Shown here piece after piece: positions 26,603 to 50,807 of a stretch of DNA of 64,000 nt. The DNA comes from Streptosporangium minutum (GTDB lineage Bacteria; Actinomycetota; Actinomycetes; Streptosporangiales; Streptosporangiaceae). Within the stretch, counting starts at the first letter, position 1. Each line of letters opens with the position of its first letter. The position numbers and the translations under genes are program-made. The notes beneath the pieces are model-generated. The model was not told where the DNA came from, ran no database searches, and was given only the letters and a program-made list of their open reading frames with translations. The DNA lies in contig NZ_NGFP01000014.1 in NCBI RefSeq assembly GCF_002149035.1, forward strand, positions 1 through 64,000, read 5' to 3'.

Positions 26603-27436
26603 TCAGAGGTGGCAGACGGAGCAGCCAGCCTCGTCATCATCGGAGTCGAGGGCGTCACTGAGGACTTCCAGGAGGGGCCGGTTGGGCTTGATGCGCTTGG
26701 CGGCGCGCTCCAACGCTGCTTGGTGCTTGGCCTCGATCTCGTCTTTGCGCGCTATCAGCTCCGGAAGGGACTCCCCCTGCGACCAGGTGTAGTTGCGGCC
26801 CTTCATGGCGGTGTGGCGGTATCGGACCTTCTCCTCGTACTCGACGGCCCGTTCGTACAGGTCGGGGTGCCGCTCCTTGAGGCCGACCCACTCGTGCTTG
26901 CGCTGGAAGAAGCAGAAGTAGCAGCCTGAGCGAGTGCGCCACTCGTAGTAGTCGGGAAGACCGATGCCAGCCTCGTCGAGGATCCGCATCACTCCGTCCT
27001 TGTCGATGCCGTCCTCGCGGAAGGGAAAGACGGCTTCAATATTCGGCTTGGTGCTGACGTAGCCGAGGCGGTTCTCGTCGGCGCGGATGGCGACGTAGGA
27101 GATGACCTTGTCATCACCGACCCAGTCTTCCAGAGGCTTGATCTTTAGGTTCTTGGTGCACCAGCGCATCTGGGGGCTGGGCAGAGTGCCCTGGTAGACC
27201 TCCATCCAGTGGTCGAAGTCGCGGTCGGCGTTCAGCCGCACGATCGACTTGCCCAAGGCGGCCTCAAGCCGATTGAGGTACTCGTAGGTCTCAGGCAGTT
27301 CGGCGCCGGTGTCGCAGAAGAAGTACTCCATCTCCGGGACTCGGTCGCGCATATAGACAGCGAGCGCGGAAGAGTCCTTGCCGCCCGAGATACCGAGCAC
27401 GTGCCGGACCTTCTTGGTGTCGACTCCTTCGGTCAT
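26603..27436 (-). CDS. sspD: SspD: PP-loop ATP pyrophosphatase of DNA phosphorothioation
   Basis: The product is 277 residues of the PAPS-reductase/DndC-like family. The PP-loop is LGISGGKDSSALAVYM near residues 14-29. Conserved Cys are in MRWCTKNLKIKP, SGCYFCFFQRKHEW and the C-terminal GCSVCHL, consistent with an iron-sulfur or sulfur-relay role. SspD activates the DNA backbone phosphate with ATP so sulfur can replace a non-bridging oxygen. Its ATG overlaps the sspC stop (ATGA). It is last in the sspA-B-C-D operon. Confidence 0.88.
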   Translation of the reverse strand: MTEGVDTKKVRHVLGISGGKDSSALAVYMRDRVPEMEYFFCDTGAELPETYEYLNRLEAALGKSIVRLNADRDFDHWMEVYQGTLPSPQMRWCTKNLKIKPLEDWVGDDKVISYVAIRADENRLGYVSTKPNIEAVFPFREDGIDKDGVMRILDEAGIGLPDYYEWRTRSGCYFCFFQRKHEWVGLKERHPDLYERAVEYEEKVRYRHTAMKGRNYTWSQGESLPELIARKDEIEAKHQAALERAAKRIKPNRPLLEVLSDALDSDDDEAGCSVCHL

Positions 27437-30400
27437 CCCTCTGCCTTCCTTTCACTCGCCGCTGTGGCGGCATCGGTCACGCGCTGGGCCAGGGCAGCTA
27501 GCAGAATGCGTGCGCCATCCGGGCCGAGCGCCTTCTCGGCCTGCTTCAGAACGTCGACGGCGAGGGTGTCGGCCTCGCCACGGACCTGCTCGGGCACGTA
27601 GACCAGGGTGCGCTGCTCTACGCCGGCGCTGTCGGTCAAGGTCAACAGCTGCGCGTCGAGCTTCTCTTCCCGGCCACGGATCTCACGCCCGGCATAGTGC
27701 AGGTGCCCGACGCGGTCGAGGGCTGCAGCCATCGTCCGGGCTTTCTGGGGGAAGACCTTGGCTTCGTGGTCGTCCCAGTCTCCGAGGGCGGAGTTGGTCA
27801 GGCGTACAACGATGGGCTCAAGCCAGTCGTCGTCTTCGAGGCTGTCACTGAGGACGAAGTCGACGAAGCCCCGCAGTTCTGGTGCCAGCACGGCGTCTGC
27901 GAAGCCTCGCAGACGGGCCGCGAGCTGGGTACGCAGCTGGGACAGTTCGGCCAGCAGACGGAACTCCTTGGCCAGTACTCGGACGACCTCGGCGCGCAGC
28001 CGATTGTCGATCGCGACGAGTTCGTCCGCAGCCGCGGTGAGGCGTTCGACGTAAGTGGTCGCCGCTTCCGTGTTGCCGCGCGTGCGTGCCGGGACCTCGG
28101 GGAGACCGAGAGCTTTCGGCAGTGCATGGAAGACCAGCTTGTCGGGGTCCACCGCCTTCGCGATGGTCGCGCGCACGGCGCGAGCATCGGCAGAGATGTT
28201 CTTGGTAGTGCGGGCGTACTTGTTGAGATCGGCCACCCGCATGATCAGGGCACTGGCGACCGCGAGCAGGTCTGGGTTGCGTAGAGCCTTGGAGCGTGGT
28301 GTTTCCACGCCGAGGGAGATCATCAGCTTCTTAATAATGCTGCCGCGCTGGCCGTCTCCGGCCGGCGTGTACTTCACCGAGAAGCGTCCCGGGCCCTTAA
28401 CGAGGCGTTCGACCACGTCGATGGTCAGCCGGGGCAGGTAGGTGCCTTCCTCGAACAGGGCGACATCGTGCCGGTGGATGACGAGGGCTGGCACGAGGAA
28501 CACCGGAATGACTCCGGCCTTGAGCCCGAAGGGCGGGCTCATCAGGGTCCGGATGACCTCCTCGATGCTCAGGCGCTCGGTGGCACCGGTGAGTACCTCG
28601 TTCAACGCGTTCCAGGCGGGCTGGGCGTGCTCGTGGCCTTCCCCAGGCGAGGAGAAGCCGTAGGGAAGCAGGCTTTCCTGATGGCTCTCGGCCTGGGCTA
28701 CGCCGTTCTCGCGGTGCAGGCCGAGGTAGGCCAGCACGCCGCTGTACATGGCGCGCTCGGGCTTATAGCCGCCAGTGAAGCCAAGGTTCTTCTGCCCTGA
28801 TGCAGAGAACATGGCCGTCAGCAGTATGCCGCGAGCCTGGGCGGCCTGGCTGGTCAGGACATGGCGGCCGAGCATCTCGTTGCGGATGTGGGGCGTGTGC
28901 GGGTACACCGATTCGCAGGCCAGGGAGACCAGTCCGCTGAGGCTCCGGGCCGTCAGGTTGGAGGCGGCTGGTTCTTCGCCAGGGGCGATGCCGCTATGCC
29001 ACAGGCTCCACGACGCCTCGGAGGATGGCGGGTAGAAGGCATCCTGCATCAGCTCCCGCAGTTCCGCTTCGGCCTGCACAATCCGCTCGGTGACTTCCCG
29101 CCGGGCGACGTGGTCGAGGCCCTGGTCATTGCTGAGTTCCTTCAGCGCGACCAGGTAGGTCGCCGTCGTGAGCACCACGTCAGGGTGTGGCGTGGTGCTG
29201 ACGAGCACTGGCAGGGGCGAGTCGACGTTCGGCCGGTCGGCATCGGTGCCGAGGTGGAAGACGACGAGACCGTCGGCAGGCTCCTTCAACTTGTCCGGGG
29301 CGGCAACTGTCTTGGTCTCCGGACCGCTGACCGCAGTGTAGAACACGCGCATCATGCCGGTGACCTGGCTATGGCGGCCAGCCACGAATGCTTGCGGGAC
29401 GAGACTGGCGAGACGATCGATGACCGAGGCGTCATCGAAGTGGCTAATGATTTCCTTGAGCCGGCCGTCGATATCGACGTCCGTGCCCTGCCAGACCCGG
29501 TACTCGCCACTGAACTCACGGTGGACCACGAAACCCCGGCGGACAAGGTCGGCGAGTCGCTCTTCGAGCGCCGTGAAGGCATCGGGGTCAGCGACCTCAG
29601 TGGGATCGTGGAGAGCGAAGTGGATCATCGGCGCGGTGGCGCTGAGGACCCCATCGGAGTCGATCAGGTTGAGGACACCGATGGTCTTCAGAACGTCCTG
29701 ATCGGGGTCCGGGAGGCCGTTGGCGTCCCGGATGCGCGAGTCGACCTCGATCCACCGGCTCGCGTTGGCGGAAGCGAGCAGGGTGGTTCGCCCAGAGTTG
29801 AGGAAGTAGTCGTACAGCTGCGGCAGTCGCACCGTGCTGGCACGGTCGGCCTTCTCGCTGCTGTGCCGGGCCAGCGAGTGGCGGACGGTATTCGGTTCCC
29901 CGCTGTTGAGGAAGCCTGAGATGCTGCGGTCGTGCTGGCCAATTTGGGCAGCGAGGATCGGTGCGGCGAGGGCCGTGATGGGGTGCAGCGGATAGAGGTC
30001 CGCGAAGTGTTCGGGTCCGAGTTCAGCCAGGACCCCTAGGCCATGGTCCGTCCAAATTTCCGCGGACGCTTGGGCCGACGCGGTAATCAGTGCCTGTCCT
30101 GCTGGGCTGACCGCCGAGTGGTCGAGGTAGCGCCGCAGCAGGTGTAGGGAGTCGCCGTAGTGAGGGACGAAGGTGATGTCCTCGAAGCGCCCTTGGATCT
30201 TGGCCCATTCACGGGTTTTGAGTTCGCTGGACCGTGAGGCGTAGTCCATGAACGACAGGTGTTGCAGGGTCATTAGGTAGACGGGCAGCCCATTGGGGCC
30301 GGCCGACTTCTCCGCGAGTTCCTGCAGCAAGAACAGGTCGTGCTGGGCATCAGCGAACTCGTTGTGGCCAGCGAGGTGTTCCAGCGTCTTGCCGAACTCG

Positions 30401-31014
30401 TCGATGACGAGGAGCAGGGGCTGCTGCCCGTCCGCCGTCAGTGCGGCAACCGCGTCGAGGATGTCCTTGGCGCTGGCAGTGTCCGGGTCCGCGCACGCCG
30501 CGAGGGCCGCGGCGATGGCTTTCGAGATGCGCTTGCCCCAGCGTCGCTCCGCCGCGGTGTGGAGGGCCCGGGCGAGCGTGGCGACCAGGGGTTCACGGCG
30601 TGCGGTGGCTACGCCACCGAGGAACCCGTCAGGGGCGATGGCGTCGCGTGCTGCGGCCAGGCGCTGAGCGAGGGCGGGGCTAGACTCGTCGAGGATGCGC
30701 TCGGCCTCGCTGCGCCGCTGGGCGTCCCGCCCGAGCAAGGCATCGATGAAGTTGGACAGAGTGGACTTACCGGATCCGTATGGCCCGGTGAACGACCAGG
30801 CGCGGGTCCGGCGTTGGTCGGCAAGTGCGCTCGCGATGCGTTCCAGAACGTCGACCGCCCGGGCGCCGACGTAGGGGTCGTGTAGGGCGTCCGTGACGTC
30901 CCGCTCGAGGTTCGTCGAGCGCATCTGAGAGCCGACGAGTTCGAGGCCAGCGGGGAACTGCGGGGCGGAGGTCGTGGGGCTGCCGGGGGTCCGCGTGGGG
31001 GTTGCGGTGGTCAC
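27433..31014 (-). CDS. sspC: SspC: large P-loop ATPase of DNA phosphorothioation
   Basis: The product is 1193 residues. Walker A GPYGSGKSTLSNFIDALLG lies near residue 75 and Walker B LLLVIDEFGKTLEHLAGHNEF near 205. The long helical remainder has no second catalytic domain I recognise. Size, ATPase type and position between DUF4007 and PP-loop genes fit SspC, which powers the single-strand phosphorothioation complex. It overlaps both neighbours by 4 bases (ATGA), so the operon is tightly coupled. An alternative label is simply a large defence-island ATPase, but the context makes SspC the better call. Confidence 0.82.
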   Translation of the reverse strand: MTTATPTRTPGSPTTSAPQFPAGLELVGSQMRSTNLERDVTDALHDPYVGARAVDVLERIASALADQRRTRAWSFTGPYGSGKSTLSNFIDALLGRDAQRRSEAERILDESSPALAQRLAAARDAIAPDGFLGGVATARREPLVATLARALHTAAERRWGKRISKAIAAALAACADPDTASAKDILDAVAALTADGQQPLLLVIDEFGKTLEHLAGHNEFADAQHDLFLLQELAEKSAGPNGLPVYLMTLQHLSFMDYASRSSELKTREWAKIQGRFEDITFVPHYGDSLHLLRRYLDHSAVSPAGQALITASAQASAEIWTDHGLGVLAELGPEHFADLYPLHPITALAAPILAAQIGQHDRSISGFLNSGEPNTVRHSLARHSSEKADRASTVRLPQLYDYFLNSGRTTLLASANASRWIEVDSRIRDANGLPDPDQDVLKTIGVLNLIDSDGVLSATAPMIHFALHDPTEVADPDAFTALEERLADLVRRGFVVHREFSGEYRVWQGTDVDIDGRLKEIISHFDDASVIDRLASLVPQAFVAGRHSQVTGMMRVFYTAVSGPETKTVAAPDKLKEPADGLVVFHLGTDADRPNVDSPLPVLVSTTPHPDVVLTTATYLVALKELSNDQGLDHVARREVTERIVQAEAELRELMQDAFYPPSSEASWSLWHSGIAPGEEPAASNLTARSLSGLVSLACESVYPHTPHIRNEMLGRHVLTSQAAQARGILLTAMFSASGQKNLGFTGGYKPERAMYSGVLAYLGLHRENGVAQAESHQESLLPYGFSSPGEGHEHAQPAWNALNEVLTGATERLSIEEVIRTLMSPPFGLKAGVIPVFLVPALVIHRHDVALFEEGTYLPRLTIDVVERLVKGPGRFSVKYTPAGDGQRGSIIKKLMISLGVETPRSKALRNPDLLAVASALIMRVADLNKYARTTKNISADARAVRATIAKAVDPDKLVFHALPKALGLPEVPARTRGNTEAATTYVERLTAAADELVAIDNRLRAEVVRVLAKEFRLLAELSQLRTQLAARLRGFADAVLAPELRGFVDFVLSDSLEDDDWLEPIVVRLTNSALGDWDDHEAKVFPQKARTMAAALDRVGHLHYAGREIRGREEKLDAQLLTLTDSAGVEQRTLVYVPEQVRGEADTLAVDVLKQAEKALGPDGARILLAALAQRVTDAATAASERKAEG

Positions 31015-32111: not shown

Positions 32112-32169
32112 CCGGAACCTCTCCATGTTCGATGCGATTGCTCTAACGAGGTGTTAAACGGGGTAACAG

Positions 32170-33321
32170 TCAGCGAGGGCCATCGGCTTCGGCCAGCGAG
32201 GAACGAACCTGAGTCACGGCCCGTACGACGGCTTGCGCCGCGTGCTCAATCTCGGCGTCCGTGGTGGCGTAGCCCAGCGAGAAGCGGATCGTGCTGTCTG
32301 CAGCCTCCCGGGACAGTCCCATCGCCAGGAGCACGTGACTCGGCGTCGGGGCACCGGATGCACACGCGCTGCCCTCCGAAGCGGCGACGTCGGGCATGGC
32401 CGCCAGCACGGCATCCGCTGGCACCCCCGGGAAGGTGATACTCGTTACACCGGGGAGTCGCTGATCCCGCCGGCCATTGAGACGGCAGTCAGGCAGAGCA
32501 AGGGTCAGCAGGCGTTCGAGGCGGTCGCGCAGTGCGGCGACACGCTCGGCTTCCTCACCAAGGTTGCGTCGGGCGGCATCGGCTGCAGCACCCAGACCGA
32601 TGATCCCCGCCACGTTCAAAGTGCCTGCGCGCCAGCCACGCTCTTGCCCACCACCCACCAGGAGCGGCCGGTGCGGCAGTGGCGTCCCACGCCGCACATA
32701 CAGCGCGCCGACACCCTGCGGGCCACCGAACTTGTGGGCCGACAGCGACAGCAGGTCGACATCGAGTTCAGCAACGTCTACAGGCAGGCGACCGACGATT
32801 TGGGTGGCGTCCGTGTGAATGAGGGCGCCGGCCTCACGGACCGCCTTGGCCACGACTCGAAGGTCGGTTAGGACACCGGTCTCGTTGTTCGCTCCCATCA
32901 GGGAGACGACCCCCCCGCTTCGTGTCACGAAGACCTGCTCCAAGGCGTTGAGATCCACCAGGCCGTCGGAGCCGACCTGTAGCAGCACAAGATCCTCTGG
33001 TCGCTCGGCGGTCACCATCCGGGCTGTCTCCAGAACAGCAGGATGCTCTGCCGGGCTCGTCACTAGCGAATTTCCAGGTGTGTAGGCAGAGCGGAGGGCC
33101 AGGTTGTTCGCCTCGGTAGCCCCGGACGTGAAGATGATCTCGCCCGGTGAGCAGTTAAGCAGGCCGGCTAGCTGTCGACGAGCAAGGTCGACCCGATGCG
33201 CGGCTTGCCGTCCCGGTTGGTGCATGCTTGAGGCGTTTCCGACCGACTGCATGGCTTCAATGACGGCTGCAGCAGCCTCAGGCCGGATCGGTGCGGTGGC
33301 ATTGTAGTCAAGGTAGGACAT
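32170..33321 (-). CDS. sspA: SspA: cysteine desulfurase (IscS/DndA-like)
   Basis: The product is about 383 residues from MSYLDYNATAPIRPEAA. It is a PLP-dependent class V aminotransferase fold: cofactor-binding TSGATEANNLAL, AEHPAVLETA, Asp in IHTDATQIVG, Schiff-base Lys in SLSAHKFGGPQGVG, and the sulfur-carrying Cys in SEGSACASGAPTPSHVL. It supplies persulfide sulfur for DNA phosphorothioation. The open frame extends to 33471, but the family starts near YLDYNAT, so 33321 (or ATG 33345) is likely. It is first gene of sspABCD. Confidence 0.9.
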   Translation of the reverse strand: MSYLDYNATAPIRPEAAAAVIEAMQSVGNASSMHQPGRQAAHRVDLARRQLAGLLNCSPGEIIFTSGATEANNLALRSAYTPGNSLVTSPAEHPAVLETARMVTAERPEDLVLLQVGSDGLVDLNALEQVFVTRSGGVVSLMGANNETGVLTDLRVVAKAVREAGALIHTDATQIVGRLPVDVAELDVDLLSLSAHKFGGPQGVGALYVRRGTPLPHRPLLVGGGQERGWRAGTLNVAGIIGLGAAADAARRNLGEEAERVAALRDRLERLLTLALPDCRLNGRRDQRLPGVTSITFPGVPADAVLAAMPDVAASEGSACASGAPTPSHVLLAMGLSREAADSTIRFSLGYATTDAEIEHAAQAVVRAVTQVRSSLAEADGPR

Positions 33322-33798
33322 ACCCGCCCCATGAGACCCGTTCATCATCTGCCACCCGTCACTTGTGTCGCACATCAATGTACTGCTGGTGGAAAGCTCG
33401 TCCCGCATCCGGGTTTCCACCAGGAGCAAGCCGATCTTAGCCATGCGGCAAGATCTACTGCTTGAAATCACTCAGACGCGTGACATCACAGGCCGCCTAC
33501 TGAACGAATGTTCTACACCTGGGTGCGGTGCGCGCAGCTTGCCTGCAGCAAGATCAGCCCAAGGGGTCGGGGATTCTGGTCAGAGAGCGACAAATCCCGC
33601 CCCTGGCTGAGGTTTTCGCCTAATAGCGCCCCTGTTGTCAGCGCCCCTGATTAGGGTGGTTCGCACGCTGCGACGTTGCGGTGCCGGCACTTTGGGGCGG
33701 TGCTTGGCGTGCTCGAACTGGGGGTGGAAGTTCATGACGACTGCGCCGACCGAGGCGCGTGCAGGCTGGTGTCCGCTACGCAACGGGCAGGTGAGTCC
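33322..33798. promoter_or_regulatory. Divergent control region between sspA and the helicase operon
   Basis: There is no gene of confidence in 480 bases. This region must hold promoters for the leftward sspABCD and the rightward helicase/GHKL/PLD operon, so both arms of the system may be co-regulated here. A direct repeat AGCGCCCCTG occurs at about 33624 and 33640. GGCAGGTGAGTCC precedes the GTG at 33799. Confidence 0.5.
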
Positions 33799-35424
33799 GT
33801 GACGGCTTGGTCACCGGGGATGTCGTTCAAGGCACTCCTCGCTGGTGCGCCGGTGTCATACATCCGGGCACATCTCGGCGAGCAGCTGTGTGCCCTGCTC
33901 GATCTGATCGAGGGGGGCACAGCGCCAGACGACCGGCTGCGGGCCGTTGCCCCGATCGCTATCGACGCCGAGCGCCTGGTCGCTGACGAGGCCGAACGCT
34001 CCACTCTCATAGAGATGGTTCCGAGCCCCAAGCAGGCCGAGCTGGCGCAGCGGCTTGGCTCGGTAGGCGATGGGCAGGCACCGCTGGGCTATCTGCGGAG
34101 CCTGAAGTGGACGGCGGACGAGCGGCGCGAGCTGCTTGAGTTCTTCGGCTTCACGATCGACCGGGTGCCGTCCCTCCCGCCGGCGTTCAAACAGGAGGCG
34201 GCGCCCGAGTATGCCTTGTTCCCGCATCAGCGTCATGCGGCGGCCCAGGTCAAGGAACTGCTGTACGACGGCTCGCGGCGGACAGTGCTCCATCTGCCCA
34301 CTGGCGTTGGCAAGACCCGAACAGGCATGAGCCTGATCTGCGATCATCTACGGCAGCACGAACCGACCGTGGTGGTGTGGCTGGCGCACGGGCAGGAGCT
34401 GCTGGAGCAGGCCGCCTCAGAGTTTGAACGCGCCTGGGCCAAGGTCGGTGACCGTCCGCTCCCCCTTCTTCGTGTATGGGGCAACGCCCCTGCAGAGCTC
34501 ACGGAGGTGACCGATGGGCTGGTCGTTCTCGGCCTGGAGAAGGCCGTCTCGACTGTCAAGTCGGATTCGCAGTTCCTGGCCACCCTTGCGGCACGCAGCA
34601 CCCTGACCATCTTCGATGAGGCTCATCAGATCATCGCTCCCACTTTCCAGAGGGTGGTCGACGAACTGACGATCCGCCATGACACTAGCCTCCTGGGGTT
34701 GACGGCCACGCCGGGACGGACCTGGGCGGATATATCCAAGGACGAGGAGCTTTCCGACTACTTCTCCCGACAAAAGGTGATGTTGGAGATCGAGGGCTAC
34801 ACCAACCCGGTGACAGCCCTGATTGAGCAGGGATACCTGGCCAAGCCGCTGATGAGGACAGTGGCCTCTGAGCCGGGTATGCACCTGTCGGCTCAGGATC
34901 AACAGCTCCTTGCGCGGTCGTTCGACATCCCGGCCGTGATGATGGCCGAGCTCGCGCGGGACGAGCAGTGGAACCTCAAGATCGTCCAGACCATCATGGA
35001 GCTGCTCAAGCAGCACCGCCGGATTCTGGTGTTCGCCGCCTCTGTCGACCACTGCCGGCTGATCGCGGCCGTCCTGTCCGCGGCTGGCATCGATGCTGAG
35101 TTCGTGACCGGCGAGTCCTCCCCTCGGCACCGCAGCCAGGTGATCTCTCGGTTTAAGGGGGCCGGTCGGCGCCCCATGGTTCTGTGTAACTTCGGGGTCC
35201 TGACGACCGGCTTCGACGCCCCGGCCGCTAGCGCTGCAGTGATCGCCCGCCCGACCAAGTCCCTGGTGCTCTACAGCCAGATGGTCGGCCGCGTCATCCG
35301 CGGCCCAAAGGCTGGCGGCACCGCCACCTGCGAGATCATCACCGTCGTGAACCCGGAGCTTCCCGGGTTCGGCGATGTGGCAGAGGCATTCACCAACTGG
35401 GAAGACGTATGGGAGACATCGTGA
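33799..35424 (+). CDS. DEAD/DEAH superfamily 2 helicase (phosphorothioation-linked restriction, candidate SspFGH component)
   Basis: The product is about 541 residues from GTG 33799. SF2 motifs are I HLPTGVGKTRTGMSL, II TIFDEAHQIIA, III LGLTATPGRTW, V GVLTTGFDAPA and VI YSQMVGRVIRG. An N-terminal extension of about 130 residues precedes motif I. Helicases of this build are linked to dnd/ssp clusters as restriction components (TIGR04095-type, from memory). The frame opens at 33676, but AGGTG before GTG 33799 and loss of conservation upstream favour the shorter form. It overlaps the GHKL gene. Confidence 0.8.
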   Translation: MTAWSPGMSFKALLAGAPVSYIRAHLGEQLCALLDLIEGGTAPDDRLRAVAPIAIDAERLVADEAERSTLIEMVPSPKQAELAQRLGSVGDGQAPLGYLRSLKWTADERRELLEFFGFTIDRVPSLPPAFKQEAAPEYALFPHQRHAAAQVKELLYDGSRRTVLHLPTGVGKTRTGMSLICDHLRQHEPTVVVWLAHGQELLEQAASEFERAWAKVGDRPLPLLRVWGNAPAELTEVTDGLVVLGLEKAVSTVKSDSQFLATLAARSTLTIFDEAHQIIAPTFQRVVDELTIRHDTSLLGLTATPGRTWADISKDEELSDYFSRQKVMLEIEGYTNPVTALIEQGYLAKPLMRTVASEPGMHLSAQDQQLLARSFDIPAVMMAELARDEQWNLKIVQTIMELLKQHRRILVFAASVDHCRLIAAVLSAAGIDAEFVTGESSPRHRSQVISRFKGAGRRPMVLCNFGVLTTGFDAPAASAAVIARPTKSLVLYSQMVGRVIRGPKAGGTATCEIITVVNPELPGFGDVAEAFTNWEDVWETS

Positions 35425-37295
35425 CCAGCGACGGCAGCAACTACCGGATCGTCAGTCCCTCTCTGACCGTCAAAGCCATGCGGGACAGCGGCTACAAAAA
35501 CACTGCCTACGCCCTCGCCGAACTGATCGACAACAGCATCGACGCCAAGGCCACCCTCGTGGAGGTCTTTGCCTGCGAGAACCCCGTGAAAGTCGGCGCT
35601 CGGACCAACCACCGCGTGGAGACCATCGCCGTCCTCGACAACGGCCACGGCATGGAGCCGCCGCAGCTGCGGCGCGCCCTGAAGTACGGTGACGGGCAGG
35701 GCGTCGACCCCGCCCGCATCGGCCGTTTCGGCATGGGCCTGCCCAACTCCAGCATGTCCCAGTGCACCCGGCTCGACGTCTGGTCCTGGACCAACGGCGC
35801 GGGCAACGCCATGCACACATACCTCGATCTCAAAGAGATTGAGGCAGGGCTGATCGACGATGTCCCCGAACCCACATACGACCCGCTGCCCGACTACTGG
35901 CGGGACCTGAGCGAGGGGCTCGGTGACACCGGCACGCTCGTCGTCTGGACGAAGCTGGACAAGGTCAACTGGTACGGAGCCGCCGCCACCCTGAAAAACA
36001 CCGCCGAGCTGATCGGCCGCGTCTACCGGCACTACCTACACGACGGACGCGTCGACATCCGAATGGCGCCCGTCCGCGAGGGCAAGGTCGTCGACGGCGA
36101 ATACCACGCCGTCCCCAACGACCCCCTCTACTTGATGGCGCCCACTTCCACCCCGGCGCCGTTCTCAGACAGGCCGATGTTCATGCCTTTCTCCATGGGC
36201 AGCGAGTCCGAGCCCGGCGTGACACGCTTCCCTGTGTTCCATGAGGGCAAGAAGCACAACATCACGGTCCGGGCCTCCATCGCTCGCCCAGAGGCACGGC
36301 GCGCCAATGTCGAAGGGCAGCCGTGGCCCGACGGCATCAGCCGCACGACCGACCCTGGAACTCTTCCGTGGGGCAAGCACGCCAGGCGCAACGTCGGCAT
36401 CTCGCTCGTACGCCAGAGCAGGGAACTCGATCTCGACGCATCCTGGGCCATTGGGTACGACCCGACGGAACGGTGGTGGGGCATCGAGGTGGAGTTCCCG
36501 CCGGAACTCGACACTATCTTCGGCGTAACGAATAACAAGCAGGGCGCCACTGTCTTCTCCTCCCTCGCTCACTTCGACTGGAAGGCCCACGCCGAGGCCG
36601 GCGAGTCTTTCAAGGGGTTCAAGGAGCGCCTTGCCGAGTTCAGCGATCCGGGTCTTCCTCTCATCGACCTCGTGCTCTACCTAGAGGAGAAGCTCCTGCC
36701 TGCCATCCGGCGGCAGCTGAAGCAGCAGACGGTCGGTACACGTAAGAGCAATAAGCGGCACGACGATGACGTCGCTTCTAGGGCCACCGACGCCGTCAAG
36801 CGCCGAAGCGAGGAGGGTTACACCGGCAAGACGGACGAGCTGGAGGAAGGGGCGACCACCGAGACCAAGCGGCAAGAACAGGTCGAGGCCCTCACCCAGC
36901 GGCACCACCTTGACGAGGACACTGCGCAGTCCATGGTCGAGGAGGCCCTTGAGAAGGATCTTCGCGCGCGGTGGATCTCCGGCTTCCAGGACACCTCCGC
37001 CTTCTTCAGCATCGACCTCATGGCTGGCATGCTGCAGGTGATCTTCAACGAGAAGCACCCCCTGCACGCTCAGCTGTTGGCCGTCCTTGAAGACGTCCCG
37101 GAAGACGCGGACGTGGACGACCTGCGCGACCGGCTCAACCGTGTCGCGGAGACCTTCAAGCTGCTGCTCTTCTCCTGGGCGCGTATGGAGGACGAGACCT
37201 ACCCCGACCGCGACCGCGAACGCATCGCGGACGCCCGCCGCGAGTGGGGACGGTACGCCCGTGACTTTGTGGACGGGAAGGCCAGCGACGCGTGA
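35421..37295 (+). CDS. GHKL (Hsp90/MORC-like) ATPase, partner of the helicase and PLD genes
   Basis: The product is about 624 residues. The Bergerat fold is explicit: N-box ALAELIDNSIDAKA (catalytic Glu and Asn), G1 LDNGHGME and G2 GRFGMGLPNSSMSQ. A transducer-like middle follows, then charged helical stretches (about 430-500) and a C-terminal domain. GTG at 35421 overlaps the helicase stop (GTGA) and has GGGAG upstream; ATG 35409 is the alternative. GHKL ATPases of MORC type occur in restriction contexts as DNA clamps. Together with its helicase and PLD neighbours it looks like a three-subunit nuclease machine. Confidence 0.82.
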   Translation: MTSDGSNYRIVSPSLTVKAMRDSGYKNTAYALAELIDNSIDAKATLVEVFACENPVKVGARTNHRVETIAVLDNGHGMEPPQLRRALKYGDGQGVDPARIGRFGMGLPNSSMSQCTRLDVWSWTNGAGNAMHTYLDLKEIEAGLIDDVPEPTYDPLPDYWRDLSEGLGDTGTLVVWTKLDKVNWYGAAATLKNTAELIGRVYRHYLHDGRVDIRMAPVREGKVVDGEYHAVPNDPLYLMAPTSTPAPFSDRPMFMPFSMGSESEPGVTRFPVFHEGKKHNITVRASIARPEARRANVEGQPWPDGISRTTDPGTLPWGKHARRNVGISLVRQSRELDLDASWAIGYDPTERWWGIEVEFPPELDTIFGVTNNKQGATVFSSLAHFDWKAHAEAGESFKGFKERLAEFSDPGLPLIDLVLYLEEKLLPAIRRQLKQQTVGTRKSNKRHDDDVASRATDAVKRRSEEGYTGKTDELEEGATTETKRQEQVEALTQRHHLDEDTAQSMVEEALEKDLRARWISGFQDTSAFFSIDLMAGMLQVIFNEKHPLHAQLLAVLEDVPEDADVDDLRDRLNRVAETFKLLLFSWARMEDETYPDRDRERIADARREWGRYARDFVDGKASDA

Positions 37296-38194
37296 CCGAG
37301 CCCGCCCACATCTGGCGGCAGATCGAAGAACTGATGACGGGCGCCCACGGACGCGTAACCCTTGTGGCGCCCTTCATCAAGCGAGAAGTTCTGGCAGCTA
37401 CACTCTCCGCCGTTCCCGCCTCTGTCGAGAGCATCGAGTGCATCACGCGGTGGGTTCCCGAGGAGGTAGCGGCAGGGGTGTCGGATCCGGAGATCATTGA
37501 GCTCGCAGAGGACGACAAGCGGCTGCGCATCGCCCTGTGCCCGAGTTTGCACGCCAAGCTCTACCTCACAGGCGAGCGCTGTCTAATCGGGTCGGCCAAC
37601 CTGACAGGGAAGGCCACCGGGCGGGTCACGAATCCGAACATTGAGATCCTTGTCGAGGTGTCCGCGACACATCCGGAAGTCGGCCGGGTACTCGCCGAGA
37701 TCGAGGCATGCGCGATTGAGGCGGCGCCCCACATGGCCGCCCTGGTGAGAAGACAAGCGGAGCTGCTGAAGGAACACCGCCCGGCTGCCTCCGACCAGCT
37801 GCGAGAGGAAGCCCAGCAGGGCTGGTACCCGGTTACACGACGCCCGGAGGCCGTCTACCCGTACTACTGCGGAAGGGCTCGATTCGGGCGATCCGTAGAA
37901 GCAGCCATCCTGCGGGACCTCGCGTTCCTAGGCGTACCGGCAGGCTTGACCGAGGCGGAGTTCTCAGACTGGGTCGAAAGCCGCCTGCGGGAGATTCCTG
38001 CCCTCCGGGCGCTGGTGGAGGGTGATCGCCTGACCAACGTGGACCTGCAGCATGCGCTGCAGGAACAGGCAGGCTTAACCGATGAGCAGGCCAAAAGAGC
38101 GACCGAGACCATTGCCGCGTGGCTTCGGCACTTCGGCCGCTTCTACACCGATGTAGGAACGTGGGAGCTCAGGCACGGGCGGGAGCTGTCGTAA
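37292..38194 (+). CDS. PLD-family nuclease
   Basis: The product is 300 residues. It has one HKD-type motif, SLHAKLYLTGERCLIGSANLT (His-x-Lys, then Ser/Asn of the GSANLT element). The first half begins GRVTLVAPFIKREVL as in PLD nucleases, and a helical C-terminal part of about 150 residues follows. Single-HKD proteins act as dimers. The GTG start overlaps the GHKL stop by 4 bases. It is the likely DNA-cutting subunit of the triad. Confidence 0.82.
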   Translation: MTEPAHIWRQIEELMTGAHGRVTLVAPFIKREVLAATLSAVPASVESIECITRWVPEEVAAGVSDPEIIELAEDDKRLRIALCPSLHAKLYLTGERCLIGSANLTGKATGRVTNPNIEILVEVSATHPEVGRVLAEIEACAIEAAPHMAALVRRQAELLKEHRPAASDQLREEAQQGWYPVTRRPEAVYPYYCGRARFGRSVEAAILRDLAFLGVPAGLTEAEFSDWVESRLREIPALRALVEGDRLTNVDLQHALQEQAGLTDEQAKRATETIAAWLRHFGRFYTDVGTWELRHGRELS

Positions 38195-38385
38195 CCGCCC
38201 CCTGAAGTGACGCCGGCATCGGTACTGAGGTCGACCACGACCCGAAACCTGATTGATGTTGAGCCGCTGTCGGCCACCCGGCCTGACCCGCTGGTGTGCC
38301 TAGGATCTGTACGGACAGCCAGGTGTGGCGGCAGCGCCCCGCCTGGCGGTCTTAGGGCAGGAGCGCAGATGTTGGGAAGGTCCTC

Positions 38386-39036
38386 ATGGCTCAAGTGCGG
38401 GTCCCGTACCTGCTCGGGCACGCTGAGATCGCTTCCCTTTTCCGAGTTGAGCGCCAAACGTCACAGAAGTGGCGCACAGAAGGCACACTTCCCGAGCCCG
38501 ACCTAGTCGCTTCCGGCAACCCGTACTGGCTGCTAACGACGGTGCTGCACATCAGCGGCGTCGGAGACCGTCGAATTGATGAGGGGCAGCTCGGAGCGTA
38601 TAAGGCCAGCAGCCCTCACGGCTATGCCCTACAGGATGACGAACAACTGCCTGCCATCCTCGGCATTCAGGAGGTAGGCCGTGTCCTCGGTCGAGATGCC
38701 CAGGCGGTTTCCCGGTGGCGCAACCGGCGACGTATCGCCGAGGCGGACCTCGTCCTCTCCGGTTCTCCACTCTGGCTCTTGGAAACGATCCTTGCGGACG
38801 CGCAACGCAGGCAGCGGCCCGTCGTCACCGCCGAGATCGCCATGCTGCGTGCGGGACAGCGCGCCCCACAGAAGCCTCGCGGCCGCAGGTCCAGCAATCC
38901 CCCCGTGGTGCGCCCGCCGCAAGAGGTGCTGCCCGCAGCACGAACGTTCACGAGCGCTGACCAGGCCGCCGCCGTGGAGTTCCTCGCATCGGTACTGGCC
39001 CAGGGCTACTCCGTCGTGATCAAGCCTCAGCCCTGA
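38386..39036 (+). CDS. Protein with two AlpA/MerR-like HTH units
   Basis: The product is 216 residues. Two homologous halves are visible: LLGHAEIASLFRVERQTSQKWRTEGTLPEPDLVASGNPYWLLTTVL and ILGIQEVGRVLGRDAQAVSRWRNRRRIAEADLVLSGSPLWLLETIL. Both read as HTH plus wing. A Pro/Arg-rich linker and a short C-terminal helix (SADQAAAVEFLASVLAQGY) follow. It is probably a DNA-binding regulator or a specificity subunit of the neighbouring genes. It lies 191 bases after the PLD gene and 88 before the PP-loop gene, same strand. Confidence 0.65.
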   Translation: MAQVRVPYLLGHAEIASLFRVERQTSQKWRTEGTLPEPDLVASGNPYWLLTTVLHISGVGDRRIDEGQLGAYKASSPHGYALQDDEQLPAILGIQEVGRVLGRDAQAVSRWRNRRRIAEADLVLSGSPLWLLETILADAQRRQRPVVTAEIAMLRAGQRAPQKPRGRRSSNPPVVRPPQEVLPAARTFTSADQAAAVEFLASVLAQGYSVVIKPQP

Positions 39037-39124
39037 GTCAACTGTCCGCCCACGGTTACGACCCACGCCGCCAACACCACCTGCGGCTGGTTCCACTGTT
39101 CGTCGACGACAATGGGAGAAACAC

Positions 39125-40054
39125 TTGATAAGCTGGCTTGCAGTCAATAATCTCTCTCACATGTCGATTCTGCAGCGCGCCCACGGAGCCCATAGCGCCG
39201 ACTCAGCCGACTCCGACCCCCAGGCCGCTTCCGGCCAGCCGAGCCACACTGCCGTGAAGGTCGTCTCCTTCGGAGGTGGCGTGCAATCAACAGCACTGCT
39301 CGTGCTGGCGGCCCGTAGAGAGATCGACTTTCGGACCTTCCTCTTCGCCAACGTGGGCGACGACAGCGAGCACCCGGCGACGCTCGCCTACGTTCGTGAG
39401 ATCGCAATCCCGTACGCGGCCCGAGCGGGGCTCGAAGTCCAGGAGCTTAGGCGGCGCCGACGTGACGGAACCACCGAGACGCTCATGCAGCGCATGAACC
39501 GGCCGGCCACGCGATCGATCCCCATCCCAGTGCGCATGGCGAACGGGGCTCCGGGCCGACGTAACTGCACAACAGACTTCAAAATCAAGGTGATCGGGCG
39601 GTGGCTCCGAGAGCATGGAGCCACCGCAGAGCATCCGGGTGCGGTGGGAATCGGTATATCGCTCGACGAGATCCACCGCGCCAACCGGCGCCGACGAGAG
39701 CCTCACGAGCTCATCGAGTACCCTCTCCTCGATCTTGGGCTGCGCAGGAGTGACTGCGAGCACATCATTATGGAGGCCGGCCTGCCGGTGCCGCCGAAAA
39801 GCTCCTGCTTCTTCTGCCCCTTTCGCACCGTCGACGCGTGGCGGCACCAGCGCAGGCACGAACCCGAGCTGTTCGCCCTGTCGGTGCAGCTTGAGGAGAC
39901 GATCAACGAACGCCGGGCTGCACTCGGGCGGGATTCCGTGTATCTCACGAGGTACGGTCGCCCGCTCGCGCAGGCAATCCCTGAAGACGGCTTGGCAGAC
40001 AGCACCGTCGACGAGGGGGATGGTTCCTGCGACTCCGGCTGGTGCATGACCTGA
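39125..40054 (+). CDS. Second PP-loop (PAPS-reductase-like) enzyme
   Basis: The product is 309 residues from TTG 39125 (GGGAG six bases upstream); ATG 39161 is possible. The PP-loop appears as VVSFGGGVQSTALLVLAA. Cys motifs are RRNCTTDFKIKVIGRWL and KSSCFFCPFRT, plus a C-terminal CDSGWCMT. The family is distinct from SspD in sequence and is widespread in actinobacteria and their phages. It may act on nucleic acid or a nucleotide with sulfur or nitrogen transfer; the substrate is unknown. A strong terminator follows, so it ends the rightward transcript that starts at the helicase or at 38386. Confidence 0.75.
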   Translation: MISWLAVNNLSHMSILQRAHGAHSADSADSDPQAASGQPSHTAVKVVSFGGGVQSTALLVLAARREIDFRTFLFANVGDDSEHPATLAYVREIAIPYAARAGLEVQELRRRRRDGTTETLMQRMNRPATRSIPIPVRMANGAPGRRNCTTDFKIKVIGRWLREHGATAEHPGAVGIGISLDEIHRANRRRREPHELIEYPLLDLGLRRSDCEHIIMEAGLPVPPKSSCFFCPFRTVDAWRHQRRHEPELFALSVQLEETINERRAALGRDSVYLTRYGRPLAQAIPEDGLADSTVDEGDGSCDSGWCMT

Positions 40055-40073
40055 ATCAACCGGACAGGGACAG

Positions 40074-40113
40074 ACGGGGCTGAAGCCTAGCTTCCGCCCC
40101 GTGCCCGTTTTTT
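40074..40113 (+). terminator. Rho-independent terminator after the PP-loop gene
   Basis: ACGGGGC-T-GAAG ... CTTC-C-GCCCCGT forms an 11-bp stem with one mismatch and is followed within a few bases by TTTTTT (40108-40113), a rare canonical U-tract terminator for this genome. Confidence 0.85.
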
Positions 40114-40162
40114 GCTTCTGCCAGATGCGGAACAGAGCCGACCGCCAGATTGGAGCACCCGG

Positions 40163-41014
40163 TCAGAGCTCGGGCGGTTCGCCAGCCTCAAGGTGGAGAA
40201 CCGCGAGGTACTCGCTATAGAGCATCTCTTCATCCACCCACCGGCTGCCGCCAGCGCCATCGGGGACCCACCTGCCATCGAAGAGATACTTGTCCTCGTC
40301 GAGAACCGCGACGCTCCCTTCGGCCAGCGCTACCGCCAGCAGCAGCTGGATCCCTAGCATTACAGCCGTGGACGCCCCCCTGGCGGCGCAAATTTCCTCG
40401 TGGCTGGCTGCGTGGATCTTCGCGTCCGCGTCGTCGGTCGGCTCGGGGACCCCCGCGAGACCGTGCACCACCTGACGGTGCACGGCGATCGCCTGGGCGA
40501 CACCGGACGCGACGGTCACAGCGGTACCGTCGGCCCGATCCCGTGCGTGAGCCGTGAGGTGCTCAGCGACTTCGCGTGCGTGCAGTGGCCAGATGTCGGT
40601 GCGGTGAGATAGCTGGTGCGCCGCCCTTTCGATGGCGATAGCGGGCTGAGAGACGTCTGGGTGCAGCACCCTGACGAGCCCTTCGAGCGCCGCCCGGACA
40701 TAGCCGAGCCGTACTAGGTGCAGCTGCCACTCCTCCACCATCTCCGACCAGACGGCGTCGAAGTCGCTGCCGACGGCACACATGCCCCCGTCGTCGTACG
40801 ACATGTCGAAGGTCACTGTGCGCAGCCCCTGGGCAAGCCGGAGCCGCTTGTAAGCGCTCTCCCAACCTGCCTGTTCGGTAGCCCCACCGCGTACGACAGA
40901 GGCCTACACCCAATCGGCGAGTTCACGGACGTGTTCCTCGGGCGCAGCCAGCGCGAGTGCTACCAGCGTGCGGTACGAGGGCAGGCAGACGCCCCCCGTG
41001 TGAGTGGTGGTCAT
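40163..41014 (-). pseudogene. Hypothetical protein gene with an in-frame TAG
   Basis: One frame runs from ATG 41014 to 40163 (283 codons) but is cut at codon 37 by TAG (40904-40906). The start reads MTTTHTGGVCLPSYRTLVAL, the stop falls after ELADWV, and the text resumes ASVVRGGATEQAGWESAYKRLRLAQGLRTV. A CAG-to-TAG change would explain it. The remainder (from GTG 40816) is a helical protein of 217 residues with no motif I recognise (FDAVWSEMVEEWQLHLVRLGYVRAALEGLVRVL). It might still be made from GTG 40816. It is opposite in strand to its neighbours. Confidence 0.55.
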
Positions 41015-41119
41015 AGGGGGAGCGTCTCATGTCCTACTGACAACACCGACCGAGCTGGCGGGCACGTTGGTGTAACGGATCGGCGTGGCCGAGCCGGGCG
41101 ACCGCAACGTGGATACGGA

Positions 41120-41162
41120 TGACCTCCGGATTAGCGTCGTCGTGTAGACGCGCCGGAGGTCA
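41120..41162. promoter_or_regulatory. Long inverted repeat upstream of sspE
   Basis: TGACCTCCGG (41120-41129) pairs with CCGGAGGTCA (41153-41162), and inside it GCGTC pairs with GACGC, making an extended two-part hairpin or operator about 250 bases before sspE. The rest of 41015-41408 has no gene I can support. GGAGG lies 10 bases before the sspE ATG. Confidence 0.55.
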
Positions 41163-41408
41163 CGGAAAGTGGGTGTGCAGGAGAGGTTTGGGGGGTTTTG
41201 TTCTTTCATCCACACGTTGTGTTGACCGGACACAGTGGAGATGAGAGAACCGAACAGGGTCTGGGTGGATTGGTCCGCCCTAACCAGTCGTGGACAAGTA
41301 TTATCGACGGTGCTCGATGGCGTCCTCCTGGAGGACGGTGGCGATGACGCCTGCATGGTGTGTCGCATCTAACCTGACCAGCCTGTTGGATTCGGAGGAC
41401 GGCCCCCC

Positions 41409-43862
41409 ATGCCCACCCAGGCCAGAGAGATATTTGAGGCGCAGAGCAAGAGCCTCCGCGAGTTGCTGTCGGACAATGGCCTCGGCCTGTACCTGCCGCC
41501 GTATCAGCGGCCGTATGGGTGGGGTAAGGACAAGGTCGAGAAGCTGCTCGACGACACCCTTCACGGTCTGAAAAATCTCGGTGAGGCTCCCGACAGCTTC
41601 ACCTTCCTGGGCACCGTGATTACCATCCACGACGTCAATCACGTTACGGTGCAGCCGATTGTGAAACCGGAAGTGCCCTCCAAGGTACTCACCGTGATCG
41701 ACGGGCAACAACGTCTATCGAGCCTGCTCCTTCTACTCGTAAGCCTTCATAATCTGACCCGCCAGCACTCATGGAAGGTCTTCAAGGGCAAGACACCCGA
41801 TTCCACGGACACTGCGCGTGCATCGCTTTACTCAGAAACTGTCGGCATCCTGCAGACCCTCAGCACTGCTTTCTATGAGCGAAAGAATTTCGGCGACGCG
41901 CCGATCTACCCTCGACTGATCCGCGCCTTCGTCGACCAGTGGTCTAAGGATGCAAAGCTCAAACAGTATGAATCTCCAATTGCGAACCTGATCTACACCT
42001 ACTCAGTCGAGGCAGACGCGGAGCCCCCGACCGTGAAGCCGACGGACTTCAGGCCGCTGGCGCGTCCCGGTGCAGGTGAAGGCGAGGGCGATCTAATTAG
42101 GCGGTTCGGCGAGATCCGTGCCGCACTGACCAAGCTCGCTCAGCGCACAACGATTGAGGAGCTTGAGGATTTGCCGCCACTCTCGACCTTGGCCAATCAG
42201 ATCGAGTTTCAGCGCGCGCTGTTCAACCATGAACTCGACCCCAAGCTGTGCAGATGGCTTCGCGAGCTGGAGGACGAGCCCGAGGCTGTCTTGATGCGGC
42301 TCGTGATGTTCGCTGCGTACGTCCTAAACCGCATTGCGCTAACTGTGGTGCAAGGCAAGGACGAGGACTATGCCTTTACCATCTTCGAGTCGCTGAACAC
42401 GACCGGTGAGCCCTTGACCGCCTTCGAAACGTTCTTGCCGCGCGTTGTGATGGCGGAAAAGGTTCAGGACTACCGAGGCTCTGACGCGCACGAGCGCATG
42501 AAGGCTGTCCAGAGCTACCTCGATCGATTTGGCGTGGGGGAGAAGCTGCAGAATGCAACCCGTGAGCTGCTGGTGACGTTTGCCCTCGCGGAGACGGCCA
42601 AGAAGCTCTCGAAGCGGCTCTCCGACCAACGCGTCTACATGAAGGACACCTTCGACAACCATAAGGATTCCGTCGATGCTCGCGCTGCGTACTTACGCCA
42701 CCTGAGCGACACGGCGACCTTCGTTGGTACAACGTGGGAGCCAGCGAAGGAAGCTCCTCGTCAGCTCGTCGGACTCCCCGCCTCCGCCATGACGGACACG
42801 GTCAAGCTCTGTCTAGCCTTCCTAAACGACCTCAACCACACAATCGCCATTGCACCCTTGTTGCGGTTCTACTCCGAGGCCGTCCATGCAGAAGAGGGCG
42901 AGGAGCGGGACAAACGAATCGCGGAGTTTGAAAAAGCTATCAAGGCGACCACCGCCTTCACGGTTTTCTGGCGAGCGACTCGAAGTGGCACCGGGAACAT
43001 CGACAGCCAATATCGATCCGTCATGGCGGGTGACTCGTTAACTGGCATGGGACCTCTTGCGCGGGCGGTGTCGAACTCAGAGCAGCCTAAGCCAACCGTG
43101 GACGCCGAAGCCCTGAAGGAGGAGCTCGCGGCGCGCTTGTCCAATACGGACAAGAAGTACGGCGGTATCCCGAACCTTGCATCGTTTCTAGCGGCGGCGA
43201 AATCTTTGCCTCTCTACAAGAACAGCCGACCACTGACGCGCTTCCTTCTGCTGGCGGCCTACCACGACACCATTGAAGACCCCGATAATCCTGGCCTTAT
43301 AAAGCAGGGAAAGGCGGGCGTGGCTCCGTGCTTCACATCAGACGGCTGGTCCGATGAAACACACTTCACGATCGAGCACATCGCTCCTCAGCAAGCGACT
43401 GGCGGATGGGATCAGGACTTTTACAGCGAGAAGGGGATCGCTGACAAGATCGTTCACAAGATCGGCAACTTGGTCCTTGCGCCAGGGGCCGCCAACACGT
43501 CGCTGAGTTCGCGACCGTGGACTGAAAAGAAGGTGTTGTACGCAGCACTTGGTGCTACGACCACCGAGGAGGCCAAAACCATTCTCAACGATTCGGGCTT
43601 GGCGTTCGCGCAGTCGACCGAGGAACTGGCCCAAATGTCTCGTTACCTGCCGCACCTGCGAGCACTCGGGCAGCGCGACGCGGAGTGGGACCCGGCTTTC
43701 ATGGATCGGCGAGCTGAAGTTCTCCTTCGACTCGCCTACGCACGACTGAAGGGCTGGCTCGGCATCGCGTGGTCGGAATCGACAACTGATCCGGTGGCCC
43801 ACCATGTCGATGACGAGGTTGAACCTGACGAAGATGACGAGTCCGCGGAGAACCTCGTCTGA
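41409..43862 (+). CDS. sspE: SspE: DUF262-DUF1524 phosphorothioation-sensing nuclease
   Basis: The product is 817 residues. The N-terminal DUF262 NTPase has LYLPPYQRPYGWGKDKVEKLLDD and the hallmark VIDGQQRLSSLLLLLVS (DGQQR). Middle DUF262 features include EDYAFTIFESLNTTGEPLTAFE. The C-terminal DUF1524 HNH-type nuclease shows FTIEHIAPQ and HKIGNLVLAPGAANTSLSSRPWTEKK. In the described Ssp system SspE senses phosphorothioates, hydrolyses nucleotide and nicks phage DNA. It lies 7.9 kb from sspA on the opposite strand and is complete. The C-terminus is strongly acidic (DDEVEPDEDDESAENLV). Confidence 0.88.
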   Translation: MPTQAREIFEAQSKSLRELLSDNGLGLYLPPYQRPYGWGKDKVEKLLDDTLHGLKNLGEAPDSFTFLGTVITIHDVNHVTVQPIVKPEVPSKVLTVIDGQQRLSSLLLLLVSLHNLTRQHSWKVFKGKTPDSTDTARASLYSETVGILQTLSTAFYERKNFGDAPIYPRLIRAFVDQWSKDAKLKQYESPIANLIYTYSVEADAEPPTVKPTDFRPLARPGAGEGEGDLIRRFGEIRAALTKLAQRTTIEELEDLPPLSTLANQIEFQRALFNHELDPKLCRWLRELEDEPEAVLMRLVMFAAYVLNRIALTVVQGKDEDYAFTIFESLNTTGEPLTAFETFLPRVVMAEKVQDYRGSDAHERMKAVQSYLDRFGVGEKLQNATRELLVTFALAETAKKLSKRLSDQRVYMKDTFDNHKDSVDARAAYLRHLSDTATFVGTTWEPAKEAPRQLVGLPASAMTDTVKLCLAFLNDLNHTIAIAPLLRFYSEAVHAEEGEERDKRIAEFEKAIKATTAFTVFWRATRSGTGNIDSQYRSVMAGDSLTGMGPLARAVSNSEQPKPTVDAEALKEELAARLSNTDKKYGGIPNLASFLAAAKSLPLYKNSRPLTRFLLLAAYHDTIEDPDNPGLIKQGKAGVAPCFTSDGWSDETHFTIEHIAPQQATGGWDQDFYSEKGIADKIVHKIGNLVLAPGAANTSLSSRPWTEKKVLYAALGATTTEEAKTILNDSGLAFAQSTEELAQMSRYLPHLRALGQRDAEWDPAFMDRRAEVLLRLAYARLKGWLGIAWSESTTDPVAHHVDDEVEPDEDDESAENLV

Positions 43863-50730: not shown

Positions 50731-50807
50731 CCGTCACTGCCGCCGGTCTTCTTCTTTGTGCTTTTCGGGAACCCGGGTGGCGCTGTGGACAGTCCCTGTG
50801 TGTGGAC

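What the first reader, a model, noticed from the sequence alone, without database searches (positions are those of the whole stretch)
26603..43862. A complete SspABCD-SspE phosphorothioation defence system in an actinomycete integrative element
SspA (Cys desulfurase), SspB (DUF4007), SspC (P-loop ATPase) and SspD (PP-loop) form one coupled operon, with ATGA overlaps at the B/C and C/D junctions. SspE (DGQQR DUF262 plus DUF1524) lies 7.9 kb from sspA on the other strand. The domain set matches the Ssp system described from Vibrio, and all catalytic motifs I can check are present. Having it as cargo of a tRNA-integrated AICE suggests how single-strand phosphorothioation spreads between mycelial bacteria.
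Basis: partly seen in the sequence, partly recalled or inferred. Interest (0 to 1): 0.8.

Follow-up and report, generated by a model that had tools for sequence, protein, structure and literature searches.

The report
Ssp phage defence with overlooked third effector
The reported sulfur-marking phage-defence genes (SspABCD-SspE) are really there inside a mobile element of an actinomycete and are of a type already known from Streptomyces, but the unreported genes between them (a helicase, a MutL/MORC-like ATPase and a nuclease) travel with Ssp genes across many bacterial phyla and look like a further, apparently undescribed, DNA-attacking arm of this immune system.

Summary
sspA, B, C, D (minus strand, 33321-26603) and sspE (41409-43862, plus) hit the PADLOC Ssp models over full length; SspE matches solved Streptomyces SspE. 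The element is real: an exact 55-bp repeat of the tRNA-Arg(CCU) 3' end at 2960-3014 and 47653-47707, RepSA, FtsK-type Tra, and a tyrosine integrase split by an in-frame stop. As Ssp alone this is a new member of a known kind.

Between sspA and sspE lies a helicase - GHKL ATPase - PLD nuclease trio (33820-38194). Of the 80 best matches of a scan of 84,980 species genomes, 75 have sspB/C/D within 10 kb; the other five lie near contig ends. All 12 near-full-length plasmid relatives and 3 of 3 viral-contig relatives are Ssp-linked. About ten phyla and three arrangements are represented. Of 33 trio-bearing actinobacterial genomes, 20 lack a full-length SspE. By profile the trio is not SspE, SspFGH or Pbe. 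Best explanation: an ATP-driven restriction module, CglI/SauUSI-like with a MORC-like clamp, using Ssp phosphorothioation as self mark. Linkage is shown; mechanism is inferred.

The parts
2960..3014 (+). attL: 3' part of tRNA-Arg(CCU) plus 10 nt
   Evidence: exact 55-bp direct repeat with 47653-47707; tRNA 2931-3004
47653..47707 (+). attR: repeat of the tRNA 3' end; element about 44.7 kb
3715..5163 (-). tyrosine integrase in two pieces (5163-4408 and 4368-3715), split by one in-frame TGA
   Evidence: Phage_integrase on the C-terminal piece; same frame on both sides of the stop
5257..6657 (-). RepSA-type replication initiator
   Evidence: PF20199, 546 bits
7877..9229 (-). FtsK/SpoIIIE-type transfer protein
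   Evidence: PF01580, 80 bits
24045..26387 (+). broken phosphorothioation-associated putative methyltransferase gene (pieces 24045-24371 and 25282-26387), split by an IS5-type transposase (24390-25109) and a frameshift near 26030
   Evidence: intact relative in L067 hits TIGR04096 at 520 bits; tblastn pieces
26603..27436 (-). sspD, PP-loop sulfur-transfer enzyme
   Evidence: PADLOC SspD 403 bits
27433..31014 (-). sspC, P-loop ATPase
   Evidence: PADLOC SspC 1380 bits
31011..32126 (-). sspB, DUF4007 DNA-binding protein
   Evidence: PADLOC SspB 409 bits, PF13182 295 bits
32170..33321 (-). sspA, cysteine desulfurase (probable ATG start at 33321; the open frame reaches 33471)
   Evidence: PADLOC SspA 434 bits, match begins at residue 53
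33820..35424 (+). trio gene 1: SF2 helicase, RadD/SauUSI-like (open frame from TTG 33676; most homologues begin near M49 = 33820)
   Evidence: ResIII and Helicase_C; alignment A3; solved relatives RadD and SauUSI
35409..37295 (+). trio gene 2: GHKL (MORC/MutL-like) ATPase
   Evidence: HATPase_c_3; MORC2/3/4 and SMCHD1; AF2 model pLDDT 83, top folds MORC2, Hsp90, MutL
37292..38194 (+). trio gene 3: PLD-family nuclease with C-terminal helical domain
   Evidence: H87, K89, G100, S101, N103, E118 invariant in 40 sequences; AF2 model pLDDT 91.5, top folds SauUSI, NucT, NgoAVII R-protein
38386..39036 (+). helix-turn-helix (BldC-like) gene, kept after the trio in 20 of 80 loci
39125..40054 (+). second PP-loop gene, SspD-like (23-25% identical, same cysteine pattern)
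   Evidence: PADLOC SspD 48 bits; alignment A7; found in 22 of 80 loci
40163..41014 (-). gene of unknown function, 282 aa in relatives, here cut by an in-frame TAG
41409..43862 (+). sspE, DUF262-DUF1524 PT-sensing nickase
   Evidence: PADLOC SspE 1076 bits; PDB 7dri, 6jiv, 7drs

Best explanation
The locus is a working-looking SspABCD phosphorothioation module that serves two restriction arms. One is the known SspE. The other is a helicase-GHKL-PLD trio that has been kept beside sspBCD in about ten bacterial phyla. Likely mechanism: SspA draws sulfur from cysteine; SspD (with SspB and SspC choosing and gripping the site) places it on one strand of host DNA. The SF2 helicase moves along DNA, the MORC/MutL-like ATPase dimerises around DNA as an ATP-gated clamp, and together they license the PLD nuclease (one HKD half-site per subunit, so a dimer) to cut DNA that lacks the Ssp mark. 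Shown here: gene content, conserved catalytic residues, conserved gene order, linkage and co-divergence with Ssp, fold relatives. Inferred: that the trio is a restriction arm, that it reads phosphorothioation, and the division of labour. Whether it attacks unmarked DNA on its own (SspFGH-like) or needs the mark to be switched on (SspE-like) is not known.
For: Linkage: 75 of 80 GHKL loci have sspB, C or D within 10 kb, 78 a helicase, 68 the PLD gene; the five without lie within 4 kb of a contig end. All 12 near-full-length plasmid relatives are Ssp-linked, as are one further actinobacterial genome of the class sample and 3 of 3 full-length relatives in viral contigs. Linkage survives rearrangement: 32 divergent, 32 co-directional, 11 convergent. 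The Ssp-linked GHKLs form one clade, support 0.97; 6 outgroup loci have no helicase/PLD trio and no sspB/C. Distances of trio and Ssp proteins correlate at 0.74-0.90 against at most 0.29 in permutations. Twenty of 33 trio-bearing actinobacterial genomes have no full-length SspE, and one model each of SspF and SspG found no full-length relative. Catalytic residues are conserved. The PLD fold resembles SauUSI and NgoAVII R-protein, both ATP-dependent restriction nucleases (PMC4267653 for NgoAVII).
Against: No activity of the trio has been measured, as far as I could find. SspABCD-SspE from S. yokosukanensis protects S. lividans when cloned (PMC9646914), so the trio is not needed for SspE action. 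P0007 has G in place of the usual HKD aspartate (D in 29 of 40). No known PT-binding domain was recognised in the trio. In two alphaproteobacterial plasmids the PLD gene is replaced and the helicase motifs are decayed. Co-divergence may partly reflect shared transfer or descent rather than contact. The scan kept only the 80 best of 293 relatives.
Confidence: 0.63

Rival explanations
1. Ordinary SspABCD-SspE in an AICE; the trio is a separate restriction or defence system that merely shares the defence island.
For: Defence genes cluster; the element also holds NB-ARC/TPR and second GHKL genes. MORC/paraMORC GHKL ATPases with SF2 helicases are known from methylation-based R-M loci (PMC2292703).
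Against: A chance neighbour would not be next to sspBCD in 75 of 80 loci, 12 of 12 plasmids and 3 of 3 viral contigs over many phyla and three arrangements; outgroup GHKLs are not.
Confidence: 0.12
2. The trio is an accessory to Ssp modification or its upkeep (for example a mismatch-repair-like machine that repairs or protects nicked PT DNA) and not a restriction arm.
For: GHKL + nuclease + helicase also describes MutL-type repair; the helicase is closest to the repair helicase RadD.
Against: Many sspBCD loci lack it: 12 of 58 plasmids with near-full SspD carry it. The PLD fold is closest to restriction nucleases. The trio occurs where SspE is absent.
Confidence: 0.15
3. The trio works like Pbe: it blocks phage replication through a PLD-helicase without cutting, in a PT-dependent way.
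For: The helicase hits PbeA at 83 bits; PbeA is a PLD-helicase fusion (PMC6459918).
Against: The PbeA hit is only to the helicase part; no PbeC (CxC ABC-ATPase) hit and no Dnd genes in the locus; a GHKL ATPase takes that place.
Confidence: 0.1

Closest known systems
SspABCD-SspE of Streptomyces (S. yokosukanensis DSM 40224, S. scabiei DSM 41658)
   Same: All five proteins; SspE matches 7dri at 809 bits over its C-terminal domain and is 76-81% identical to that of eleven other actinobacterial genomes
   Different: Here sspE lies on the other flank of the block than in relatives, and the trio lies between sspA and sspE
SspABCD-SspFGH (Vibrio anguillarum FF-93; PMC8092258)
   Same: A three-gene arm beside sspBCD, compatible with SspE
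   Different: No trio protein hits the SspF, SspG or SspH models; one Agrobacterium plasmid carries both SspFGH and a helicase-GHKL relative
PbeABCD with Dnd (PMC6459918; corrected in PMC10853773)
   Same: PLD plus SF2 helicase beside PT genes
   Different: Fused PLD-helicase with CxC ABC-ATPase and DndE-like protein; here separate PLD, helicase and GHKL ATPase, and Ssp instead of Dnd
MORC/paraMORC restriction systems (Iyer 2008, PMC2292703)
   Same: GHKL ATPase next to SF2 helicase and nuclease, some with an HKD domain
   Different: Described with base methylases; the paper has no mention of PAPS, PP-loop or phosphorothioation. Its species list includes Nitrococcus mobilis, whose trio is L086, so the GHKL itself may have been in that set
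CglI / NgoAVII and SauUSI ATP-dependent restriction enzymes
   Same: PLD nuclease driven by an SF2 helicase; closest folds of the PLD protein (PMC4267653)
   Different: No GHKL component; the mark or target is a methylated base

Membership tests
SspABCD-SspE | SspA, SspB (DUF4007), SspC, SspD by profile | tested here: met
   434, 409, 1380 and 403 bits to PADLOC models
SspABCD-SspE | SspE with DUF262 DGQQR and DUF1524 HNH | tested here: met
   1076 bits, DGQQR at 98, motifs, 7dri/6jiv
SspABCD-SspE | single-strand 5'-C(ps)CA-3' phosphorothioation of host DNA | not testable with these tools
   needs LC-MS or PT sequencing of the strain
AICE | integration at a tRNA 3' end with direct repeats | tested here: met
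   55-bp exact repeat
AICE | RepSA-type initiator and FtsK-type transfer protein | tested here: met
AICE | intact integrase | tested here: not met
   in-frame TGA splits the frame; could be a sequence error; says this copy may be stuck, not that the element is of another kind
SspFGH | SspF, SspG, SspH homologues | tested here: not met
   no hit of the trio in PADLOC; SspF and SspG models not matched in G000
PbeABCD | PLD-helicase fusion PbeA with PbeC ABC-ATPase | tested here: not met
   only the helicase part is PbeA-like; no PbeB, C or D hit
MORC/paraMORC R-M systems | GHKL ATPase with SF2 helicase and nuclease | tested here: met
MORC/paraMORC R-M systems | DNA base methyltransferase as partner | tested here: inconclusive
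   partner is Ssp; a TIGR04096 PT-associated putative methyltransferase is present in relatives but broken here

The most novel reading that the evidence does not exclude
A third, widespread restriction arm of Ssp immunity in which a MORC/MutL-like ATPase clamp couples recognition of a sulfur mark on the DNA backbone to a split helicase-PLD nuclease; it would account for part of the sspBCD loci that have no known effector.
Probability: 0.55. Interest if true: 0.75.

Novelty: new variant of a known kind. Interest (0 to 1): 0.62.

Why it matters
A published census reports that 83.9% of 2,678 sspBCD loci have neither sspE nor sspFGH beside them, and asks whether other restriction partners exist (PMC8092258). 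The trio is a concrete, conserved candidate that can be tested by cloning three genes. It would also bring the MORC/MutL family of ATPases, so far tied to base methylation, repair and chromatin, into immunity based on a backbone modification.

Tried and rejected
Trio = SspFGH or Pbe: rejected by PADLOC profiles. Second PP-loop protein P0010 as a plain phage PAPS-reductase unrelated to Ssp: its best plasmid relative (55%) is not beside ssp, but its position after the trio is kept in about 20 of 80 loci, so it is left open as an actinobacterial add-on. Other Streptomyces ssp loci in the same AICE: no integrase, RepSA or Tra relatives and no tRNA within their 10-kb flanks. The SspG genome search rang nowhere, controls included, so its silence is weak. 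Nine literature searches found no description of the Ssp-linked trio, but subscription papers, including the 2020 Nature Microbiology Ssp paper, are not in the library.

Full report
What is there. The window is contig C46:1-64000 of a 9.58-Mb draft genome. PADLOC and Pfam confirm sspA, sspB, sspC and sspD on the minus strand (33321-26603) and sspE on the plus strand (41409-43862) with high scores over essentially whole models, and with the expected catalytic motifs. The B/C overlap is GTGA and the C/D overlap ATGA. SspE matches the solved S. scabiei C-terminal domain 7dri at 809 bits and full-length Streptomyces SspE structures. This is the only DUF4007 gene of the genome; none of 15 other genomes of the genus has one.

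The vehicle. The 3' end of tRNA-Arg(CCU) is repeated exactly over 55 bp at 2960-3014 and 47653-47707, which frames a 44.7-kb element with a RepSA initiator and an FtsK-type transfer protein. The integrase frame is interrupted by one TGA. Transposase genes lie on both sides of the block. Relative to Streptomyces relatives the core block keeps its order at about 76-88% DNA identity, but the flanks are swapped: in relatives sspE (minus) follows sspD and a PT-associated putative methyltransferase lies at the other end, whereas here sspE sits on the far right (plus) and the methyltransferase on the left. That methyltransferase (TIGR04096, 520 bits in the intact relative) is broken here by an IS5-type insertion and a frameshift, and a neighbouring gene of unknown function by an in-frame TAG. 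The Ssp genes, the trio, the HTH gene and the second PP-loop gene are all open. The element is thus partly decayed with its core kept.

What was missed. Divergent from sspA, and overlapping each other by 16 and 4 bases, are a RadD/SauUSI-like SF2 helicase, a GHKL ATPase whose solved relatives are MORC2, MORC4, MORC3 and SMCHD1, and a PLD nuclease. The PLD model (pLDDT 91.5) is closest to SauUSI, NucT and the NgoAVII R-protein; the GHKL model (pLDDT 83) to MORC2, Hsp90 and MutL. All active-site residues tested are invariant in 33 GHKL and 40 PLD sequences, except the aspartate of the HKD motif, which is D in 29 of 40 and G here. Of 74 helicases, 69 have the Walker A motif, 71 DEAH, 71 TATP and all QMxGR.

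Linkage test. A tblastn search of 72,556 plasmid records with the GHKL found 55, of which 12 cover at least 80% of the query. The regions of 11 of these were read and all carry Ssp genes near the helicase-GHKL pair; the twelfth, NC_007410, a second T. variabilis strain, carries GHKL and SspD about 5 kb apart. Hosts are cyanobacteria, alphaproteobacteria and a Hymenobacter. A single scan of 84,980 species genomes with an alignment of these found 293 relatives; of the 80 best, 75 have sspB, C or D within 10 kb (72 sspC, 69 sspD, 67 sspB), 78 the helicase, 68 the PLD gene. One of the 75 (L116) rests on a weak 53-bit SspC hit. The five exceptions (L084, L109, L121, L128, L131) all lie within 4 kb of a contig end. 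By record title the hosts include Actinomycetota, Cyanobacteriota, Alpha- and Gammaproteobacteria, Bacteroidota, Chloroflexota (Anaerolineae), Planctomycetota, Acidobacteriota (Holophagales), Armatimonadota and Gemmatimonadota. Three of three full-length relatives in viral contigs are also in Ssp-trio loci. The two modules occur divergently (32), co-directionally (32) and convergently (11), so proximity was kept, or regained, through rearrangement. Six outgroup GHKL loci have no trio and no sspB/C; one of them (L136) sits beside a dndCD locus with the same TIGR04096 gene. The Ssp-linked GHKLs are one clade with support 0.97. Pairwise distances correlate 0.74-0.90 between trio and Ssp proteins, against 0.93-0.98 within Ssp and 0.93-0.97 within the trio.

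Is the trio a partner in its own right? In 33 trio-bearing actinobacterial genomes, 13 have a full-length SspE (11 at 76-81%, 2 at 37-38%) and 20 have none. One SspG model found nothing, controls included, and one SspF model found only two partial hits, so absence of SspFGH is suggested, not proven. On plasmids, 12 of 58 records with near-full SspD also have the full-length GHKL: the trio is optional for Ssp, as expected of an effector, while Ssp is nearly obligatory for the trio.

Mechanism. From established biochemistry of CglI/NgoAVII (PLD R-protein and helicase N-protein form R2N2 and cut with heavy ATP use; PMC4267653) and of MORC/MutL clamps (own knowledge), the most likely scheme is a helicase that translocates, a GHKL clamp that loops or grips DNA, and a PLD dimer that cuts when the Ssp mark is absent. 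This is inference. No PT-reading domain was recognised in the trio.

Compared with what is known. Ssp with SspE in Streptomyces is known (PMC9646914). SspFGH (PMC8092258) and Pbe (PMC6459918, PMC10853773) are different gene sets. MORC/paraMORC restriction loci with SF2 helicases were described in 2008 (PMC2292703), without phosphorothioation. Nine library searches found no account of the Ssp-linked trio, but the library is incomplete. I therefore file SspABCD-SspE here as a new member of a known system and the trio as a new variant: a putative further Ssp effector.

Noticed in passing
39125-40054: Second PP-loop protein, 23-25% identical to SspD, sharing the CT, CxxC and C-terminal cysteines (CDSGWC); its place after the trio is kept in about 20 actinobacterial ssp loci, with a BldC-like HTH gene before it. 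It might add a second PT site or have another sulfur role.
   Followed up: partly
45454-47124 and 44950-45444: A second, distant GHKL ATPase (MzaB-like) with a small partner gene. Full-length relatives (65-68%) occur in 3 of 33 trio-bearing actinobacterial genomes; in two they follow sspD in the slot that sspE has elsewhere, and none of the three has a full-length SspE. Another possible Ssp partner.
   Followed up: partly
24045-26387: TIGR04096 PT-associated putative methyltransferase gene broken by an IS5-type insertion and a frameshift, while intact in Streptomyces relatives; the family is also found beside a dnd locus (L136). Its role is unknown.
   Followed up: partly
10000-12900 and 50100-56900: Genes of the element (XRE-type regulator, NUDIX, monooxygenase-like, others) are repeated at 75-94% identity just outside attR, as if a second element or its remnant lies next door.
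   Followed up: no
19199-20467: Gene with eight 108-bp tandem repeats (36-residue TPR-like units), 66-84% alike.
   Followed up: no
L042 and L047 (Agrobacterium and Aminobacter plasmids): Trio variants in which the PLD gene is replaced by an unrelated one and the helicase motifs (Walker A, DEAH) are decayed, while the GHKL stays intact; L042 also carries SspFGH.
   Followed up: partly
L136: A different GHKL ATPase beside dndC, dndD, a DndA-like gene and TIGR04096 in an actinobacterium; GHKL ATPases may have been recruited to phosphorothioation systems more than once.
   Followed up: no
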